A program made the position numbers and the translations under genes. DNA of 64,000 nt, taken from Halosolutus halophilus (GTDB taxonomy: Archaea; Halobacteriota; Halobacteria; Halobacteriales; Natrialbaceae). A model generated the notes under the pieces. It saw only the letters and a list, made by a program, of their open reading frames with translations, made no database searches and was not told the DNA's origin. The DNA lies in contig NZ_CP094974.1 of assembly GCF_022869805.1 (NCBI RefSeq), positions 434,001 through 498,000 of the forward strand, read 5' to 3'. How positions within the stretch are numbered: position 1 is the first letter of the stretch; every line of letters starts with the position of its first letter. This document shows positions 14,498 to 23,217 of the stretch, in pieces.

Positions 14498-15601
14498 ATG
14501 GCAGACTTTGACTTACACAGCACGGCGGGGCGACTGGAAGCACTGCGACGGATGCTAACCATTCGCGCATTCGATGAGGAAGCTGGGGATCGGTTCGCAG
14601 ACGGCGAAATACCGGGGTTCGTACACCTCTACATCGGAGAGGAGGCGGTCGGTGTCGGGACGTGTGCGGCCCTCGACCCGGACGACTTCATTTCGAGCAC
14701 CCATCGCGGCCACGGCCACTGCATCGCGAAGGGACTCGACCCGAAGTACATGATGGCCGAACTCTACGGCAAGGCCGAGGGCTACTGCAACGGCAAGGGT
14801 GGCTCGATGCACATCGCGGACGTCGACGCCGGAATGCTCGGCGCGAACGGGATCGTCGGCGCCGGGCCGCCGCTCGCGACCGGCGCGGCGCTGTCGATCG
14901 ACTACCAGGACGGCGATCAGATCGCGGTCGGCTTCCTCGGGGACGGGGCCGTCGCGCAGGGCCAGGTTCACGAGGCGATCAACCTCGCTGCGACCTGGGA
15001 CCTGCCGGCGGTCTTCGTCGTCGAGAACAACCAGTACGGCGAGGGGACGGCGGTCGAGAAGCAACACAACGTCGACAACCTGAGCGACACGGCACAGGCC
15101 TACGACATTCCCGGACTGACCGTCGACGGGATGGACGTCACCGCGGTCGAAGAGGGCGTCGCCGAGGCGCGCGAACGCGCCACTGCGGGCGAGGGACCGA
15201 CGCTCGTCGAGGCCGAGACCTACCGCTACCGCGGCCACTACGAGGGCGACGAGGAGCCCTACCGGGACGACGCGGAGATCGAACGCTGGCAGGAACGGGA
15301 CCCGATCGACTCGTTCAAGGAACGACTGATCGATCGCGGCGAACTCACGGCCGAGGAGTTCGACGACCTGCAGGCGGCGGTGGAGGCCGAGATAGAGGCG
15401 GCGATCGAGTACGCCCAGGAGGCCGATCGGCCGACGCCGGACGAGGCCTACGACGACATGTTCGCCGAGATGCCACCGGAGATCGAACGCTTTGCGGCGG
15501 CGGCGAAGGCGAGACCCGACGGCGGTGAGCGAATCTCTGATTCGCGAGCCTCGTCGGAGCACAACTCCGACAGCGGCCGTCAGGGAGGTGACCGACCGTG
15601 A
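14498..15601 (+). CDS. 2-oxoacid/acetoin dehydrogenase E1 component, alpha subunit
   Basis: Thiamine-diphosphate-dependent decarboxylase subunit of a 2-oxoacid dehydrogenase complex; substrates of the family include pyruvate, branched-chain 2-oxoacids and acetoin. The 367-residue protein has the ThDP/Mg motif GDGAVAQGQVHEAINLAATWDLPAVFVVENN (in two parts near residues 149-179) and the phosphate-contact segment STHRGHGHCIAKG. The motif GKGGSMH near residue 103 is shared with acetoin dehydrogenase alpha subunits. The C-terminal 45 residues are hydrophilic and Ala/Asp/Ser-rich. The ATG at 14498 is chosen because the family N-terminus starts there. The stop overlaps the GTG of the beta subunit by four bases. 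The following AcoX-like gene favours an acetoin-type assignment, though substrate is unproven. Confidence 0.9.
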   Translation: MADFDLHSTAGRLEALRRMLTIRAFDEEAGDRFADGEIPGFVHLYIGEEAVGVGTCAALDPDDFISSTHRGHGHCIAKGLDPKYMMAELYGKAEGYCNGKGGSMHIADVDAGMLGANGIVGAGPPLATGAALSIDYQDGDQIAVGFLGDGAVAQGQVHEAINLAATWDLPAVFVVENNQYGEGTAVEKQHNVDNLSDTAQAYDIPGLTVDGMDVTAVEEGVAEARERATAGEGPTLVEAETYRYRGHYEGDEEPYRDDAEIERWQERDPIDSFKERLIDRGELTAEEFDDLQAAVEAEIEAAIEYAQEADRPTPDEAYDDMFAEMPPEIERFAAAAKARPDGGERISDSRASSEHNSDSGRQGGDRP

Positions 15602-16611
15602 CCGCACACGCCGAACCGGAGCGCGAACTCGATACCGAAACGGAGACGATGACCGTCCGGGAGGCCATTCGACAGGCCCTCCGCGAAGAACTCGACCGCG
15701 ACGAGGACGTGTTCCTCATGGGCGAGGACATCGGCGTCTTCGGGGGCGTCCTCGAGGTGACCGGCGACCTCTACGAGGAGTTCGGCGAGGAGCGGGTCCG
15801 TGATACCCCGATCAGCGAGGCCGGCTTTACCGGTGCGGCGACGGGTGCCGCGGCAACGGGCACCCGACCGGTCGTCGAACTCATGTTCTCGGACTTCAGC
15901 GGCGTCGCGATGGAACAGATCATGAACCAGATGGCGAAGATGCGGTACATGTTCGGCGGGAAGGCCGAGATGCCGCTCACCGTCCGGACCACCGAGGGCG
16001 GCGGGATGGGTGCCGCGAGCCAGCACTCGGGGACGGTCCACACCTGGATCGCGCACTTCCCCGGCCTGAAGGCCGTCGCCCCCGGCACCGCCGCGGCCGC
16101 GAAGGGGCTGACGAAGGCGGCGATCCGATCGAACGACCCCGTCTTCGTCTTCGAGAACAAGATGATTTACGAACAGCAGGGTGCGGTGCCGACCGACGAG
16201 GACTTCACGGTCCCGATCGGCGAGGCCGCGATCGAGCGCGAGGGCGACGACGTCACCGTGGTCGCGACCCAGCGCCTCGTCGGCGAGTCCTTACAGACCG
16301 CCGAGAGCATCGCCGACGACGTGGACGTCGAGGTGATCGACGCTCGATCGCTGTACCCGCTCGATACCGAGACGATCGTCGAGAGCGTCGAGAAGACCGG
16401 TCGGCTCATCGTCGCCGACGAGAGCCCGCTCTCGTACGGCACCCACGCGGAAATCGTCGCTCGCGTCCAGGAAGAGGCGTTCTTCAGCCTCGACGCACCC
16501 ATCCAGCGGGTGGGGACGCCCGACACGCACATCCCGTTCAGTCCGACGCTCGAAGAGGAGGTGCTCCCCGACGGCGAGGACGTCCGCGAGGCGATCGAGC
16601 GGGTGGCCTGA
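15598..16611 (+). CDS. 2-oxoacid/acetoin dehydrogenase E1 component, beta subunit
   Basis: Completes the E1 heterotetramer. The 337-residue protein has the typical VFLMGEDIGVFGGVLEVTGDL and RVRDTPISEAGFTGAATGAA segments of the ThDP pyrimidine-binding domain, the ELMFSDF strand, and a C-terminal transketolase-like domain with VIDARSLYPLDTETI and a final PFSPTLEEEVLP. The GTG at 15598 overlaps the alpha stop codon (GTGA arrangement); an ATG at 15649, 17 codons in, is an alternative start close to where similarity begins. Coexpression with the alpha subunit is assured by the overlap. The partner E2 lies convergently downstream; no E3 gene is present in the window. Confidence 0.92.
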   Translation: MTAHAEPERELDTETETMTVREAIRQALREELDRDEDVFLMGEDIGVFGGVLEVTGDLYEEFGEERVRDTPISEAGFTGAATGAAATGTRPVVELMFSDFSGVAMEQIMNQMAKMRYMFGGKAEMPLTVRTTEGGGMGAASQHSGTVHTWIAHFPGLKAVAPGTAAAAKGLTKAAIRSNDPVFVFENKMIYEQQGAVPTDEDFTVPIGEAAIEREGDDVTVVATQRLVGESLQTAESIADDVDVEVIDARSLYPLDTETIVESVEKTGRLIVADESPLSYGTHAEIVARVQEEAFFSLDAPIQRVGTPDTHIPFSPTLEEEVLPDGEDVREAIERVA

Positions 16612-16617
16612 CGACTC

Positions 16618-17649
16618 GTGACGCACGTTGGACTGATCGTCAACCCCGCCGCTGGCCGCGACATCCGCCGGCTCACCGGCGGTGCCAGCGTCGTCGACAA
16701 CTACGCGAAGCGCCGGGTCGCGGAGTGCGTGCTCGACGGCCTGACCGCGGTGGCCGATCCGCCGGCGGTACGGGTCATGCCGGACCGATCGGGAATCGCC
16801 GACCACGCGATCGAGGCGTCGCCCGACGTCGTGGACGCAACGCTGCTCGACCAACCGGTCGAGAAGTCGTCGGCCGACACCCGCCGGGCTGCCGCCCGGT
16901 TTCGCGAGGTGGGGGTCGCCGCGGTGGTCGTCCTCGGCGGTGACGGGACGACCCGCGACGTCGCCCGGGAAATCGGGGACGTCCCGGTGATCGCCGTCTC
17001 GACGGGGACGAACAACGTCGTCCCGACGGCCGTCGACGGCACCCTCGCTGGCGTCGCCGCGGCGCTGATCGCGACGGGTGCGGTCCCGGCGGCCGACGTG
17101 ACCGCGCGACACGGGATGGTCGAGGCGCGTGCCGAGACGTCGACCGGCGAGCGCCGACTGTCGGCGCTCGCGGCCGCCGAAGTGTCCTCGCGATCGTTCG
17201 TCGGGACGCGGGCGCTTCTCGATCCGGCCGATCTGTGCGGCGGTGTCGTCTCGCGAGCCCACCCGGGCGACGTCGGTCTCGCGGCCGTCGCAGGTGCGTT
17301 CGAGCGAGTCGCACCCACCGATCCAGGCGGCGTCGCGCTCCGACTGGCCGACCCCGCCGACGCTCCGCGAACCGTTCGGTCGGTGCTCGCTCCCGGCGTC
17401 ACCGCGACCGTCGGGGTCGCGTCCGTCGATCGGCTCGCGTGGGGCGAGACCGCCCAGTTCGACGTCCCCGACGGCGTCGTCGGGGCGGACGGGGAGCGCG
17501 AACTGGAACTCACGGGTGCGACGGTCGACCTCACGCCGGTTCTCGAGGGTCCCCGTCTCGTCGACGTCAACGAGACGCTCTCCGCCGGTGCCGACGCCGG
17601 TGCGCTCGTCGCCGAGGGGCCCGATCGACTGCCGGCGATCGAGGACTGA
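16618..17649 (+). CDS. AcoX-like ATP-NAD kinase family protein
   Basis: Member of the NAD-kinase-fold AcoX group, which accompanies acetoin dehydrogenase genes in bacteria such as Ralstonia but has no established reaction. The 343-residue protein starts at a GTG six bases after the E1 beta stop. The N-terminus GLIVNPAAGRDIRRLTGGASVVDNYAKRR (split here at its G-R step) is characteristic. The diacylglycerol/NAD-kinase signature LGGDGTTRDVA lies near residue 107 and STGTNNV near residue 132. A NAD(H)- or other metabolite kinase or a binding protein are alternatives. A second, longer member of the same superfamily is encoded at 30464-31600. Its operon position is the main reason to consider the whole cluster acetoin-dehydrogenase-like. 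Confidence 0.8.
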   Translation: MTHVGLIVNPAAGRDIRRLTGGASVVDNYAKRRVAECVLDGLTAVADPPAVRVMPDRSGIADHAIEASPDVVDATLLDQPVEKSSADTRRAAARFREVGVAAVVVLGGDGTTRDVAREIGDVPVIAVSTGTNNVVPTAVDGTLAGVAAALIATGAVPAADVTARHGMVEARAETSTGERRLSALAAAEVSSRSFVGTRALLDPADLCGGVVSRAHPGDVGLAAVAGAFERVAPTDPGGVALRLADPADAPRTVRSVLAPGVTATVGVASVDRLAWGETAQFDVPDGVVGADGERELELTGATVDLTPVLEGPRLVDVNETLSAGADAGALVAEGPDRLPAIED

Positions 17650-17727: not shown

Positions 17728-18237
17728 ATGGCCAGTGATACCGTTCCACAAGTGGACGTGGAGTTGCCGGAACTCTCGCAGGTCGCGTTCGTCGTCGAGG
17801 ATCTGGAGGACGGGATGGATCGGTTCGACGGGTTACTCGGAGTCGGCCCCTGGCAGGTCTACCGGTTCGAGCCGCCCGCGCTGACCGATCGGACCTTCCG
17901 CGGCGAGACCCACGAGTACTCGATGCGGCTCGCACTCGCGCAACTCGGCGAGACGATGCTCGAACTGATCGAACCGCTCGAGGGCCCCAGCATCTACACC
18001 GAGCACCTCGACGAACACGGCGAGGGGCTGCACCACGTCGCCTGTTTCGCGTTCGAGGACCCACACGCGGTCGTCGAGACGTTCGAGGACGCCGGCATGC
18101 CGGTGATCCAGAGCGGCAACTTCGACGGGGTCGAGTTCTGGTACTTCGACACCGCGGCCGAACTCAACGGGACGATCTTCGAGACCGCGGCGAACGTCGA
18201 CGCGATCCCGGAGCCGGACGCGACCTATCCGGAGTAG
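17728..18237 (+). CDS. VOC (glyoxalase/methylmalonyl-CoA epimerase fold) protein
   Basis: A 169-residue vicinal-oxygen-chelate protein with two beta-alpha-beta-beta-beta modules. Likely metal ligands by alignment to the fold are Gln in LSQVAFVVED (where many members have His), Glu in MLELIEP, the second His pair in LHHVACFAFED and Glu in TIFETAANV. That set resembles epimerase/isomerase members more than ring-cleaving dioxygenases. It follows the AcoX-like gene by 78 bases on the same strand and may act on an acyl-CoA or 2-oxoacid linked to the dehydrogenase complex, but this is inference from context. No signal peptide. Confidence 0.75.
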   Translation: MASDTVPQVDVELPELSQVAFVVEDLEDGMDRFDGLLGVGPWQVYRFEPPALTDRTFRGETHEYSMRLALAQLGETMLELIEPLEGPSIYTEHLDEHGEGLHHVACFAFEDPHAVVETFEDAGMPVIQSGNFDGVEFWYFDTAAELNGTIFETAANVDAIPEPDATYPE

Positions 18238-18284: not shown

Positions 18285-20099
18285 TCAGACTCGTTCCCAG
18301 GTGATCTCGACCGGCAGATCGTCCCGGAGGAGCTGCGAGACGTGACAGCCCCGTTCGCCGAGGTCCACGATGCGCTCGATCGTCTCGTCGTCGGCGTCCG
18401 TCTCGAGTCGGACCGTCGCCTCGATCCGTTCGACGGACCCGTGTTCGGGTTCGGCGTCGGTGGTCACGTCGATCGCGTCGATCGGCGCGTCGCGCTTCGA
18501 GGCCTGGAAGCGCACGCTCAGCGAGAGGCAAGCGGCCAGGCCGCCGAGGAAGACGTCGACCGGTGATGGCCCCGTCTCCGTCCCGCCCGCGTCCTCGGGT
18601 TCGTCGAAATCCCACGCGAACGAGCCGGCCTCGATCGTTCCGGCCATGCCATCGGGGTTGTGCGCGGTGACGGTCCGTTCGGGCATCTGCGTTCCGGCGC
18701 CCGATCGGCTCTCGGCTTCGCCCTCGATCTCCGCGGGGAGCAGCGACCACGGCTCCTCGAGGTGATCGACGAGCGTCTCGAGGAATCTGGCGGCGTCGGC
18801 TCCGTCGACGATCCGGTGATCGAACGTGAGATCGAGCGGGAGGTGACGTCGCCACGTCACCTCGTCGTTCGGGCCGCGAACGGGCGTCTCCGAGACGGCG
18901 TCGACGCCGAGGATGGCGACCTGCGGCGGGTTGATGATCGGATCGAACGATTCGACCCCGAGCACGCCGAGGTTCGTCACCGTGAACGTCCCACCCCGCA
19001 AGTCGTCCATCGTGTACTCGCCCTCGATCGCCCGCTGGACGAGGTCGCGTCGCTCCGTCGCGATCGTTTCGAGCGACTTGCCGCCGACGTCGGACAGCAC
19101 CGGCGCGATCAGCCCATCGTCGACGTCCACGGCGATGCCGACGTTGTGATCCGCCCAGAGCCGGTGGACCTCGTCCTCGAACGTCGCGTTGAACGCCGGA
19201 TGATCGCCGAGAGTCGCCGACACCGCGAGCAACAGCACGTCCTGGACGGAGACGTCCGCTCCGAGGCCCTCGTCCGCGGCGTTCGTCGCGGCGAACAGGG
19301 CCTCGGCGTCCGCGGTGCGATGGACCGTCACGTGCACGGCGTCCCGGTAGCTCTCGCCGAGCCGTCTGGCGATCGTCTTGCGCATCCCGCCGAACGATCG
19401 CGTCTCCGCGGGGGTTCGTCCGGTCGCGTCGGTCGCCCCGGTCGCCGCTTCCTCGACGTCCTCTTCGGTGATCGCTCCCTGGTAGCCCGATCCCTCGACG
19501 GACGTCAGGTCGACGTCCAGTTCGTCCGCCCGTTTTCGCGCCCGTGGAGACGCGTCGACGTCGGCTTCGTCGGCCGGTTCGCCCTCGGCCGCTGCCTCGA
19601 CGTCGTCCTCGGTGATCGCTCCCTGGTAGCCCGTCCCCTCGACGGACGTCAGGTCGACGCCGAGATTTTCGGCGCGTTCTCTGGCGCGTGGCGACGCCTT
19701 TACATCGGCCCCCTGGTCGCCGCCAGTTTCGGGTTCGACCACCGGTTCCTCGTGGCTACCCGTGGCCGGATCAGCGGCTGTGCCGGACTCGTGCGTTGCC
19801 GCCTCCGTCTCCGCCGTCAGGTCGGTCTCCGCTTCCGCCTCGAGTTCGGTGATGTCCGCGTCGGCGGGTGCGACGATTCCGATCGGAGTTCCGGGTGGGA
19901 CCGTCTCGCCTTCCTCGATGTACGTTCGCCGGAGGACGCCGTGTTCACGCGCTTCGACCTCGGCGACGCTCTTCTCGGATTCGACCTCGGCGATGACGTC
20001 GCCCTCTTCGACGGTTGCCCCGTCGTCGATTTCCCACGCGAGTAACTCCCCCCGTTCCATCTCCAGTCCCAGTTTCGGCATCTTGACAATGTAGCCCAT
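18285..20099 (-). CDS. 2-oxoacid dehydrogenase E2 (dihydrolipoamide acyltransferase) fused to a C-terminal OsmC/Ohr domain
   Basis: Core acyltransferase with an unusual extra domain; 604 residues against about 400-540 for normal E2. An N-terminal lipoyl domain (residues 1-78) carries the lipoylation site ESEKSV with Lys43. After an acidic linker come two nearly identical peripheral-subunit-binding domains (about 132-170 and 180-219). The catalytic domain (232-453) ends with DHRIVDG, giving His428 and Asp432. Residues 472-604 form an OsmC/Ohr-like domain with GLAACLSLSVR (Cys524) and GERGCHVSQLL (Cys585), the expected two redox cysteines. Ohr enzymes are known to take electrons from dihydrolipoyl groups, so a self-contained lipoyl-dependent peroxidase is a reasonable inference. 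It converges on the E1-acoX-VOC genes and has its own leaderless promoter. Confidence 0.9.
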   Translation of the reverse strand: MGYIVKMPKLGLEMERGELLAWEIDDGATVEEGDVIAEVESEKSVAEVEAREHGVLRRTYIEEGETVPPGTPIGIVAPADADITELEAEAETDLTAETEAATHESGTAADPATGSHEEPVVEPETGGDQGADVKASPRARERAENLGVDLTSVEGTGYQGAITEDDVEAAAEGEPADEADVDASPRARKRADELDVDLTSVEGSGYQGAITEEDVEEAATGATDATGRTPAETRSFGGMRKTIARRLGESYRDAVHVTVHRTADAEALFAATNAADEGLGADVSVQDVLLLAVSATLGDHPAFNATFEDEVHRLWADHNVGIAVDVDDGLIAPVLSDVGGKSLETIATERRDLVQRAIEGEYTMDDLRGGTFTVTNLGVLGVESFDPIINPPQVAILGVDAVSETPVRGPNDEVTWRRHLPLDLTFDHRIVDGADAARFLETLVDHLEEPWSLLPAEIEGEAESRSGAGTQMPERTVTAHNPDGMAGTIEAGSFAWDFDEPEDAGGTETGPSPVDVFLGGLAACLSLSVRFQASKRDAPIDAIDVTTDAEPEHGSVERIEATVRLETDADDETIERIVDLGERGCHVSQLLRDDLPVEITWERV

Positions 20100-20374: not shown

Positions 20375-22279
20375 ATGAGCGACGACGAACTCATCTGGCG
20401 AATCGCAGGCGGTTCCGGAGACGGGATCGACTCGACGAGCCAGAATTTCGCAAAGGCGCTGATGCGTTCGGGGCTCGACGTGTTCACACACCGCCACTAT
20501 CCATCGCGGATCCGCGGCGGCCACACGTACGTCGAGATCCGGGCCGCAGGACACGAGGTACAGTCACGGGGAGACGGATACAACTTCCTGCTCTCGCTGG
20601 GCGACTCCTTCGCCCGTAATCCACAGGAGGAGGCCTACTACGGGAACGAGGAGATCAAGCCGCTCTCGGAGAACCTGGACGACCTCCGCGAAGGCGGGAT
20701 CATCGTCTACGACGAGGGTCTCATCAGCGAGGAGGACGTCGCAGACCTCGACCTCGAGGAGCGTGCCGAGGAGAACGACTGGCACGTGTTCCCGATGGAC
20801 CTTCGCGGGCTCGCGAAGGAACACGGCCGCGAGGTCATGCGCAACACCGCCGGCGTGGGTGTCACGGCGGCCCTGCTGGACATGGAACTCGAGCACATCG
20901 AGGACCTGATGTCCGACGCGATGTCCGGTGACGTCCTCGAGTCGAACCTCGAGATCCTTCACGAGTCCTACGAGACGACGAAGGAGGAGTACGACTTCGA
21001 GCACGACCTGCGAGCGCCCGAGGGCTCTCACGAGACCGAGCAGGCGCTGCTGTCCGGCTCGAACGCGATCGCCTACGGCGCGATCGACGGCGGTTGCCGG
21101 TTCATCTCCGGCTACCCGATGACGCCGTGGACGGACGTCTTCACGATCCTCACCCAGAACTTCCCCGACATCGGGGGCGTCTCGGAACAGGTCGAAGACG
21201 AGATCGCCGCCGCCGCGCTGGCCGTCGGCGCGAGTCACGCCGGCGTGAAGGCCATGTCCGGGTCCTCCGGGGGCGGCTTCGCCCTGATGAGCGAACCGCT
21301 CGGCCTCGCGGAGATGACCGAGACGCCGCTCGTCCTCGTCGAGTCGATGCGGGCCGGCCCCTCGACCGGGATGCCCACCAAACCCGAGCAGGGCGACCTC
21401 GAATTCGTCCTCTACACGAGCCAGGGCGACTCCTCGCGGGTCGTCTTCGCGCCGGGGAACATCGAGGAGGCCTACGAGCAGACCCGACTCGCGTTCGACA
21501 TCGCCTGGGAGTACCAGATCCCGACGATCATCATCTACGACCAGAAGCTCTCCGGCGAGAACACGAACGTCGACGTCGAGTTCTTCGATCGCGAACCCGA
21601 ACCGGGACTCGGCTCGACCCTGACCGAGGAGGAACTCAAAGAGGCGGCCCACGACAACTCCGGGAAGTTCAAGCGGTTCAACTACGAGGACGCCGAGAAC
21701 GGCGTCGCGCCGCGATCGCTGCCCGGCCAGAAGGGCGGGCGCTACCTCGCGACCGGGAACGAACACAGCCCGGTCGGGCACATCAGCGAGGACCCCGACA
21801 ACCGGGTCTTCCAGATGGACCGGCGCATCGGGAAACTCGACGCCATCCGCGAGGAACTCGACGAGGAACGGCCCTCGAACCAGACGTACTTCGGCGACGA
21901 GACGGCCGAGTACGGCATCATCACGTGGGGCTCCTCCCAGGGCGCCGTCCAGGAGGCCGTCCAGCGCCTCAACGAGAGCGGCCACTCGGTCAAGGGACTG
22001 AGCGTCTCCGACATGATGCCGTTCGCCGAAGCCGAGGTGACCGACTTCCTCGAGAGCGTCGACGAGGCGATGGTCGTCGAGATGAACGCGACCGCCCAGT
22101 TCCGCGGGCTCATCCAGAAGGAACTCGGCCGCTTCGGCGACAAGATGACCAGCCTGCTCAAGTACAACGGCAACCCCTTCGAACCGGCCGAGGTCGTCGA
22201 GGGGTACGAGGTCAACCTCGCCGACGAGGACCGCCAGCCGACCGCACAGGTCCGAATCGAACCCGCCGCAGGTGACTGA
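20375..22279 (+). CDS. korA: 2-oxoacid:ferredoxin oxidoreductase, alpha (gamma-alpha fused) subunit
   Basis: Large subunit of the enzyme that oxidatively decarboxylates a 2-oxoacid to acyl-CoA with ferredoxin as acceptor, the catabolic route haloarchaea use in the citric acid cycle and for pyruvate. The 634 residues begin with a gamma-type domain (IAGGSGDGIDSTSQ, SRIRGGHTYVEIR; about 1-190). The alpha-type ThDP pyrimidine-domain follows with GSNAIAYGAIDGGCRFISGYPMTP-like sequence (read in two parts near residue 230), then VEDEIAAAALAVGASHAG and GPSTGMPTKPEQGDL. Haloarchaea have pyruvate and 2-oxoglutarate versions; kor is my best guess, por is possible. It is followed after two bases by the beta subunit. 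Confidence 0.9.
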   Translation: MSDDELIWRIAGGSGDGIDSTSQNFAKALMRSGLDVFTHRHYPSRIRGGHTYVEIRAAGHEVQSRGDGYNFLLSLGDSFARNPQEEAYYGNEEIKPLSENLDDLREGGIIVYDEGLISEEDVADLDLEERAEENDWHVFPMDLRGLAKEHGREVMRNTAGVGVTAALLDMELEHIEDLMSDAMSGDVLESNLEILHESYETTKEEYDFEHDLRAPEGSHETEQALLSGSNAIAYGAIDGGCRFISGYPMTPWTDVFTILTQNFPDIGGVSEQVEDEIAAAALAVGASHAGVKAMSGSSGGGFALMSEPLGLAEMTETPLVLVESMRAGPSTGMPTKPEQGDLEFVLYTSQGDSSRVVFAPGNIEEAYEQTRLAFDIAWEYQIPTIIIYDQKLSGENTNVDVEFFDREPEPGLGSTLTEEELKEAAHDNSGKFKRFNYEDAENGVAPRSLPGQKGGRYLATGNEHSPVGHISEDPDNRVFQMDRRIGKLDAIREELDEERPSNQTYFGDETAEYGIITWGSSQGAVQEAVQRLNESGHSVKGLSVSDMMPFAEAEVTDFLESVDEAMVVEMNATAQFRGLIQKELGRFGDKMTSLLKYNGNPFEPAEVVEGYEVNLADEDRQPTAQVRIEPAAGD

Positions 22280-22281
22280 CC

Positions 22282-23217
22282 ATGAGTGCATTCAACGCAA
22301 TCGGTGAAGAACGAGAGATCGACCGGGACGAGTTCACACCCAGTGTCGAACCGCAGCCGACCTGGTGTCCGGGCTGTGGCGACTTCGGCGTCCTGAAGTC
22401 GCTGAAACAGGCCCTGCCCGAAGTCGGCAAGACCCCCGAGGAAGTCCTGACCGTCACCGGGATCGGCTGTTCCGGCAAGCTGAACAGCTACCTCGACACG
22501 TACGGCTTCCACACGATCCACGGTCGATCGCTGCCGGTCGCCCGCGCGGCCAAACTCGCCAACCCGGAACTCGAGGTCATCGCCGCGGGCGGGGACGGCG
22601 ACGGCTACGGGATCGGCGGCAACCACTGGATCCACACGGCCCGCGAGAACCACGACATCACCTACATCGTGTTCAACAACGAGATCTTCGGCCTGACGAA
22701 GGGCCAGACCTCGCCCACCAGTCCGAAGGGCCACAAGTCCAAGACCCAGCCGTCCGGCAGCGCGAAGACCCCGCTGCGTCCGCTGTCGATGTCGCTGAAC
22801 GCCGGCGCGAGCTACATCGCCCGCACGGCCGCCGTCAACCCCAACCAGGCCAAAGAGATCATCGCGGAAGCGATCGAGCACGACGGCTTCGCTCACGTCG
22901 ACTTCCTGACGCAGTGTCCCACGTGGAACAAGGACGCCCGCCAGTACGTTCCCTACATCGACGTCCAGGAGTCCGACGACTACGACTTCGACGTCACGGA
23001 CCGCCGCGAAGCCGCCGAGATGATGTACGAGACCGAGGACGTCCTCAACGAGGGGACCGTCCTCACGGGCCGGTACTACGTCGACGAGGATCGGCCGTCC
23101 TATCTGGAGGAGAAACGAGCCGTCGGCGAACTGCCGGACGAACCGGTCGCCGAACGCTACTTCGACGAGGACGCCGAGTGGGAACGCAGCTACGACCTGC
23201 TCGATCGGCACACGTAG
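22282..23217 (+). CDS. korB: 2-oxoacid:ferredoxin oxidoreductase, beta subunit
   Basis: ThDP- and iron-sulfur-binding subunit, 311 residues. Cysteines for the single [4Fe-4S] cluster are visible in WCPGCGDFG, GIGCSGK and TQCPTW. The ThDP/Mg motif is GGDGDGYGIGGNHWIH followed by FNNEIFGLTKGQTSPTS. It starts two bases after the korA stop with GGTGA as a short ribosome-binding match. Together the two subunits form the heterodimeric haloarchaeal enzyme. An Lrp/AsnC-type regulator gene lies about 630 bases downstream on the same strand. Confidence 0.93.
   Translation: MSAFNAIGEEREIDRDEFTPSVEPQPTWCPGCGDFGVLKSLKQALPEVGKTPEEVLTVTGIGCSGKLNSYLDTYGFHTIHGRSLPVARAAKLANPELEVIAAGGDGDGYGIGGNHWIHTARENHDITYIVFNNEIFGLTKGQTSPTSPKGHKSKTQPSGSAKTPLRPLSMSLNAGASYIARTAAVNPNQAKEIIAEAIEHDGFAHVDFLTQCPTWNKDARQYVPYIDVQESDDYDFDVTDRREAAEMMYETEDVLNEGTVLTGRYYVDEDRPSYLEEKRAVGELPDEPVAERYFDEDAEWERSYDLLDRHT

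What the first reader, a model, noticed from the sequence alone, without database searches (positions are those of the whole stretch)
18285..20099. E2 acyltransferase fused to an OsmC/Ohr-type thiol peroxidase domain
One continuous 604-residue frame contains a lipoyl domain (Lys43), two subunit-binding domains, a complete acyltransferase domain (His428/Asp432) and, from residue 472, an OsmC/Ohr-like domain with both redox cysteines (Cys524, Cys585). Ohr/OsmC enzymes are known to be reduced by dihydrolipoyl groups of 2-oxoacid dehydrogenase complexes. A fusion would place the peroxidase within reach of the swinging arm, giving a complex that both oxidises 2-oxoacids and removes organic hydroperoxides with the same electrons, or protects itself during oxidative load. 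I am not aware of a characterised example.
Basis: partly seen in the sequence, partly recalled or inferred. Interest (0 to 1): 0.82.

Follow-up and report, generated by a model that had tools for sequence, protein, structure and literature searches.

The report
E2 acyltransferase–OsmC thiol-domain fusion
In many salt-loving archaea the core protein of an acetoin-dehydrogenase-like enzyme complex carries an extra OsmC-type thiol domain at its tail; the fusion is real and widespread, but at least six lineages lost the complex and the lipoyl lysine and kept the OsmC domain, so that domain probably does a redox job that does not need the complex's swinging arm.

Summary
Window 18285-20099 (-) is one 604-aa frame: lipoyl domain (Lys43), two E3-binding domains, an intact acyltransferase (His428/Asp432) and an OsmC domain (about 470-604, Cys524/Cys585). 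It is no assembly artefact: I collected 55 distinct fused homologues from at least five Halobacteriales families, most beside E1alpha-E1beta-AcoX genes.

The domain is OsmC-fold, but not Ohr or classical OsmC by NCBIfam cut-offs, and it lacks the catalytic Arg/Glu of true peroxidases. Its active site is of the YhfA / OsmC-esterase type, for which activity is unknown or was sought and not found.

New evidence comes from natural deletions. Thirteen homologues, at least 6 independent origins, lost E1, the E3-binding domains and the acyltransferase, leaving a short lipoyl-OsmC protein. In all 13 the lipoyl lysine is gone while both OsmC cysteines persist (72/72 overall), and OsmC dN/dS in three short-form pairs is as low as in fused pairs. 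So the OsmC domain works without a tethered swinging arm, though lipoyl groups elsewhere could still reduce it.

Best reading: an autonomous two-cysteine redox module hitch-hiking on E2. New variant of a known kind; interest moderate.

The parts
18285..20099 (-). whole gene: E2 acyltransferase-OsmC fusion, 604 aa plus stop
19878..20087 (-). lipoyl domain (residues 5-74); lipoyl lysine K43 at 19971-19973
   Evidence: Pfam PF00364; position; K43 kept in E2-OsmC proteins that retain E1
19590..19700 (-). first E3 (peripheral subunit)-binding domain, about residues 134-170
   Evidence: Pfam PF02817 two stretches; helices 137-146 and 164-172 in the model
19452..19553 (-). second E3-binding domain (residues 183-216)
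   Evidence: Pfam PF02817
18738..19406 (-). acyltransferase catalytic domain (residues 232-454) with FDHRIVDG (H428, D432)
   Evidence: Pfam PF00198, 218 bits; motif
18288..18692 (-). OsmC domain (about residues 470-604); C524 at 18528-18530, C585 at 18345-18347
   Evidence: Pfam PF02566; AF2 pLDDT 94.8; PDB folds; both Cys 72/72
14501..15601 (+). E1 alpha of the complex (convergent cluster)
   Evidence: Pfam E1_dh; TIGR03182 372.7 bits, just below cut-off
15598..16611 (+). E1 beta of the complex
   Evidence: Transket_pyr + Transketolase_C; NF006667 above cut-off
16618..17649 (+). NAD-kinase-like protein, AcoX-type by position and family (acetoin cluster)
   Evidence: PF01513; conserved next to E1 beta in relatives
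17728..18237 (+). glyoxalase/methylmalonyl-CoA-epimerase-like protein, often kept in the cluster
   Evidence: PF13669

Best explanation
The protein is the E2 core of an acetoin-dehydrogenase-like 2-oxoacid dehydrogenase complex with a C-terminal OsmC domain of the YhfA / OsmC-esterase active-site type. The OsmC domain is an autonomous two-cysteine redox module: the helix cysteine (C524) attacks an oxidised or electrophilic substrate, forms a disulfide with C585, and is re-reduced by thiols. In the intact complex the dihydrolipoyl arm is the handiest reductant, but the domain does not depend on it: when lineages lose the complex they keep the OsmC domain, with both cysteines, and let the lipoyl lysine go. 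Shown: the fusion, its conservation, the repeated losses, lysine loss and cysteine retention. Inferred: that the cysteines are redox-active, what they act on, and that they take electrons from the arm when it is present.
For: Both cysteines in 72/72 distinct homologues, fused, short or free. 13/13 short forms lack the lipoyl lysine (S, A, T, G, R or H there) and lack E1 and acyltransferase at the locus; nine of the ten Natrialbaceae short forms sit beside korA like the fused gene. Seven short-form genomes keep no close E1alpha (at most 39% identity) and no full-length orthologous acyltransferase (PDH-type, at most 40%, plus a 90-residue fragment in G044); G154 and G152 do keep a further E1alpha elsewhere. 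Short forms nest inside the fused clade: 7 changes, 6 forced by well-supported branches, single origin rejected (AU p 3.6e-92); lysine loss goes with the short form in 6/6 independent pairs. dN/dS of the OsmC part in three short-form pairs 0.16-0.19, as in fused pairs (0.12-0.18), against 0.29-0.46 in the lipoyl remnant (fused 0.04-0.20). Active-site class: Ohr Glu column is Val/Ile/Pro, Ohr Arg column mostly Met, acidic residue one position on in 72/72.
Against: In the fused proteins that keep E1 the lysine is intact (one frameshifted locus, L114, set aside), so coupling inside the complex is not excluded. In short-form genomes other lipoylated proteins remain (PDH-type E2), so reduction by lipoyl in trans is possible. 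Four free OsmC genes sit in the aco-like cluster beside E1 (L048-L050, L124), hinting at some link with the complex. No activity is known for this active-site type.
Confidence: 0.6

Rival explanations
1. One reading: the swinging dihydrolipoyl arm reduces the OsmC disulfide in cis, so the complex is also an organic hydroperoxide reductase using electrons from the E1 substrate or from NADH through E3.
For: Intact Lys43, two E3-binding domains and cysteine pair in one chain; Ohr/OsmC are known to be reduced by lipoylated proteins (PMC8945050); the E2-OsmC genes keep the lysine while E1 is present.
Against: All 13 lipoyl-OsmC short proteins, which would be minimal E3-driven lipoyl peroxidases, lost the lysine and the E3-binding domains. 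No Ohr/OsmC catalytic Arg/Glu. OsmC-esterase inactive as peroxidase with DTT (PMC5113044).
Confidence: 0.2
2. The OsmC domain is structural: Ohr/OsmC proteins are homodimers, and a dimerising tail would cross-link E2 trimers.
For: Ohr/OsmC are tight homodimers (PMC5962072); the domain sits at the C-terminus of the trimer-forming core.
Against: Invariant cysteine pair and the domain's survival without the E2 core are not expected of scaffolding; related complexes have E2 without OsmC.
Confidence: 0.06
3. The OsmC domain maintains lipoyl cofactors (removing oxidised, alkylated or mis-acylated lipoyl species), in cis in the complex and in trans in short-form species.
For: Ohr structures with bound dihydrolipoamide exist (6ebg, 6ebd); short-form genomes keep other lipoylated complexes.
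Against: No direct evidence; other E2 proteins of the same genome carry no OsmC.
Confidence: 0.1

Closest known systems
OsmC-esterase family (EstRM and relatives; PMC5113044)
   Same: an enzyme with a C-terminal OsmC domain that keeps both cysteines; a 400-residue chain annotated as an OsmC protein (9wo1) is the best PDB sequence match of our domain; that 9wo1 belongs to this family is my inference from its length and layout
   Different: partner enzyme is a serine esterase, not a lipoylated E2; no swinging arm nearby
YhfA subfamily of Ohr/OsmC proteins (E. coli YhfA, PDB 1ml8)
   Same: two cysteines kept, catalytic Arg and Glu absent, acidic residue 9 before the first Cys; fold match (VIA Z 15.1, 2.1 A over 126 residues)
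   Different: does not score in the YhfA model NF008009/PRK10738; nearest NCBIfam domain is OsmC_like_Se, itself below cut-off
Ohr lipoyl-dependent peroxidase (Xylella Ohr)
   Same: fold, cysteine pair, biochemical link of the family to lipoyl proteins
   Different: separate protein; has the Arg19/Glu51 catalytic residues (PMC5962072), absent here
Acetoin-dehydrogenase-type complex (acoX-acoA-acoB-acoC) and haloarchaeal 2-oxoacid dehydrogenase complexes
   Same: E1alpha, E1beta, AcoX-like protein and a lipoylated E2 with E3-binding domains
   Different: E2 carries OsmC and lies on the opposite strand; substrate unknown (for Hfx. volcanii oadhAB3, similar to AcoAB, no substrate was identified, PMC8305020)

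Membership tests
2-oxoacid dehydrogenase E2 (dihydrolipoyl acyltransferase) | lipoyl domain with lipoyl lysine | tested here: met
   PF00364 and K43 in ESEKS
2-oxoacid dehydrogenase E2 (dihydrolipoyl acyltransferase) | E3/E1-binding domain | tested here: met
   PF02817, two stretches
2-oxoacid dehydrogenase E2 (dihydrolipoyl acyltransferase) | acyltransferase domain with HxxxDG | tested here: met
   PF00198 218 bits; FDHRIVDG
OsmC superfamily (Pfam PF02566) | profile score over cut-off and OsmC fold | tested here: met
   61.7 bits against 27.5; AF2 pLDDT 94.8 and PDB matches
OsmC superfamily (Pfam PF02566) | two conserved cysteines | tested here: met
   C524 and C585 in 72/72 homologues
Ohr subfamily (peroxidase) | NCBIfam TIGR03561 cut-off | tested here: not met
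   28.8 bits against 88.85
Ohr subfamily (peroxidase) | catalytic Arg and Glu | tested here: not met
   Arg column Met485, Arg in 4 of 72; Glu column Val514
OsmC subfamily (peroxidase) | NCBIfam TIGR03562 cut-off | tested here: not met
   18.2 bits against 85.8
OsmC subfamily (peroxidase) | catalytic Arg in the Gly-rich loop | tested here: not met
   no Arg in FDEPEDAGGTETGPSPVD
YhfA-like class | cysteine pair kept, Arg and Glu absent (PMC8945050) | tested here: met
YhfA-like class | YhfA model NF008009/PRK10738 | tested here: not met
   not among the hits of the domain
acetoin dehydrogenase | AcoX-like neighbour with E1alpha/E1beta | tested here: met
acetoin dehydrogenase | acetoin as substrate | not testable with these tools
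   needs an assay
lipoyl-dependent peroxidase | hydroperoxide reduction with dihydrolipoyl electrons | not testable with these tools
   needs an assay

The most novel reading that the evidence does not exclude
A 2-oxoacid dehydrogenase complex with a built-in thiol redox enzyme fed by its own swinging arm, i.e. a dehydrogenase-peroxidase chimera, in which a non-canonical (Arg/Glu-less) OsmC active site is nonetheless a working lipoyl-dependent reductase.
Probability: 0.2. Interest if true: 0.8.

Novelty: new variant of a known kind. Interest (0 to 1): 0.52.

Why it matters
The YhfA-like and enzyme-fused OsmC domains have no established activity. Here nature supplies a comparative series in one clade (fused to a live complex; free beside a complex; stranded after the complex was lost), which shows that the cysteine pair is selected for independently of the partner enzyme. 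It gives small, tractable proteins in which to find the activity, and it warns against reading the fusion as proof of lipoyl-driven peroxidase coupling.

Tried and rejected
Assembly or frameshift artefact at the junction: rejected, same fusion in dozens of genomes. Ohr subfamily membership: rejected on cut-offs and residues. Short lipoyl-OsmC proteins as minimal lipoyl peroxidases, my own first reading: rejected because the lipoyl lysine is absent in all 13. Short form as one ancestral clade: rejected by the AU test. Internal translation start at the conserved Met of the OsmC domain: no Shine-Dalgarno at proper spacing seen, not pursued. Fusion in bacteria: a plasmid search gave E2 matches that stop near the end of the E2 part in the rows listed; bacterial chromosomes were not surveyed. 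Literature: no paper found in the open library describing an E2-OsmC fusion; subscription papers are not held. Full-chain AF2 (mean pLDDT 75.7) is too weak to place the OsmC domain relative to the lipoyl arm; it modelled residues 466-512 poorly although the OsmC domain alone modelled well.

Full report
WHAT IS THERE. The minus-strand frame 18285-20099 encodes 604 residues without interruption. Pfam finds, all over the curated cut-offs, a lipoyl domain, two E3-binding domains, the acyltransferase domain and an OsmC domain. The OsmC part folds with high confidence on its own (pLDDT 94.8) and its top solved matches are OsmC/Ohr-family structures: 2onf, 6mjn, 1ml8 (E. coli YhfA), 1lql. The gene converges with E1alpha, E1beta, an NAD-kinase-like AcoX-type gene and a glyoxalase-like gene, and diverges from korAB. 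The AcoX neighbour makes this an acetoin-dehydrogenase-type cluster; that is inference, and the substrate is unknown. A lipoamide dehydrogenase above the family cut-off exists elsewhere in the genome.

IT IS NOT AN ARTEFACT AND NOT RARE. The whole protein matches full-length fusions in many Natrialbaceae and in Halogranum. In the family, 55 of 125 genomes hold a close OsmC relative; in a sample of the order, 57 of 392, with fused frames in further families f4, f5, f12 and f14. After removing duplicates I had 72 distinct loci: 55 fused, 13 short, 4 free OsmC genes.

WHICH KIND OF OsmC. The domain scores far below the NCBIfam cut-offs for Ohr and for OsmC; its best domain model is OsmC_like_Se, also below cut-off. 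In the alignment with B. subtilis OhrB and E. coli OsmC and YhfA the Ohr/OsmC glutamate column is Val/Ile/Pro, the Ohr arginine column is mostly Met (Arg in 4 of 72), and there is no arginine in the Gly-rich loop of the window protein; as in YhfA, an acidic residue sits nine before the first cysteine, in 72/72. The literature describes YhfA proteins exactly so, two cysteines but no Arg/Glu, activity unknown (PMC8945050; PMC5962072). The closest PDB sequence is a 400-residue OsmC chain (9wo1), consistent by length with the OsmC-esterases; one of these was assayed with H2O2 and cumene hydroperoxide in the presence of DTT and showed no peroxidase activity (PMC5113044). An OsmC-like protein of Francisella likewise showed none (PMC4069020). 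So 'thiol peroxidase' is a guess here, not a property read from the sequence.

THE NATURAL EXPERIMENT. In some relatives lies a short protein of about 220-280 residues: a lipoyl-like domain joined straight to OsmC, with no E3-binding domain, no acyltransferase and no E1 genes next to it. Nine of the ten Natrialbaceae cases sit beside korA, exactly where the fused gene lies; one is in the window's own genus (L051). Of nine such genomes tested, seven have no close E1alpha; G154 and G152 have a further complex elsewhere. Acyltransferase searches of nine short-form genomes (seven of those plus G190 and G285) gave only PDH-type domains at most 40% identical and one 90-residue fragment (G044); a tenth, G005, is 70% complete and gave none. 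I first read these short proteins as minimal lipoyl peroxidases. They are the opposite: in all 13 the lipoyl lysine is replaced (S, A, T, G, R or H) and the hairpin is sometimes enlarged, while both OsmC cysteines stay. On the OsmC tree the short forms nest inside the fused clade and need 7 origins, 6 forced by well-supported branches; one origin is rejected (AU p 3.6e-92), and lysine loss goes with the short form in 6 of 6 independent pairs (sign test p 0.03). The tree has few columns and some long branches, so exact branching is soft. In three pairs of short forms dN/dS is 0.16-0.19 for OsmC, as in fused pairs (0.12-0.18), but 0.29-0.46 for the lipoyl remnant against 0.04-0.20 in fused pairs (Nei-Gojobori, few pairs, descriptive). 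An intermediate exists in G016 (L028/L126): acyltransferase and OsmC kept, lipoyl lysine changed to Glu, E3-binding domains and neighbouring E1 gone.

The coupling is loose the other way too. Related aco-type clusters in Haloferax, Haladaptatus and some Natrialbaceae (L041-L044, L063) have an E2 with the lipoyl lysine and no OsmC. In genus g28 OsmC is a free gene in the same cluster (L048-L050, L124). In the catalytic-domain tree two rows labelled plain (L064, L118) are in fact duplicates of fused loci, so its change counts are too high and are not used here.

MECHANISM. I commit to an autonomous two-cysteine redox module: C524 reacts with an oxidised or electrophilic substrate, C585 resolves to a disulfide, thiols restore it. 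In the intact complex the arm can plausibly serve as one reductant, which could explain how the fusion arose and persists, but selection does not require it. Steps shown: fusion, conservation, independent losses, cysteine retention, lysine loss. Steps inferred: redox activity, substrate, reductant. Main caveat: short-form species still have other lipoylated complexes (PDH-type E2), so lipoyl groups in trans could feed the domain; the data argue against dependence on the tethered arm, not against lipoyl as such.

VERDICT. Observation confirmed, interpretation partly supported. OsmC domains fused to enzymes are known (OsmC-esterases) and E2 complexes are known; the E2-OsmC pairing and its repeated reduction to a lysine-less remnant are, as far as the open literature searched shows, undescribed. 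New variant of a known kind.

Noticed in passing
L049 9413-10921 (-), L050, L124, L045 8001-9341 (+), L130 5734-7044 (+): E2 proteins of aco-like clusters that keep the lipoyl ESEK lysine, E3-binding domains and E1/AcoX neighbours but whose acyltransferase domain lost HxxxDG (YDARAIGG, YDTNAIGF, YDTHAIDG): apparently pseudo-acyltransferases. In L049, L050 and L124 OsmC is a separate gene beside the complex.
   Followed up: partly
L126/L028 (genome G016): Possible decay intermediate: acyltransferase with FDHRVVDG plus OsmC, but lipoyl lysine changed to Glu, no E3-binding domain, no neighbouring E1.
   Followed up: partly
L114 (genome G168): Lipoyl part and acyltransferase part of the E2-OsmC gene seem to lie in different frames: a frameshift or sequencing error.
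   Followed up: no
L048 6076 (+): The E2 frame stops after 168 codons in this genome although close relatives are full length: frameshift or sequencing error.
   Followed up: no
window 20375-23217: korAB (2-oxoacid:ferredoxin oxidoreductase) lies directly upstream and divergent, and is next to most fused and short forms in Natrialbaceae.
   Followed up: no
G075:C1:3945580-3945846: Second partial OsmC copy (66% identity) with an internal stop, likely a decaying duplicate.
   Followed up: no
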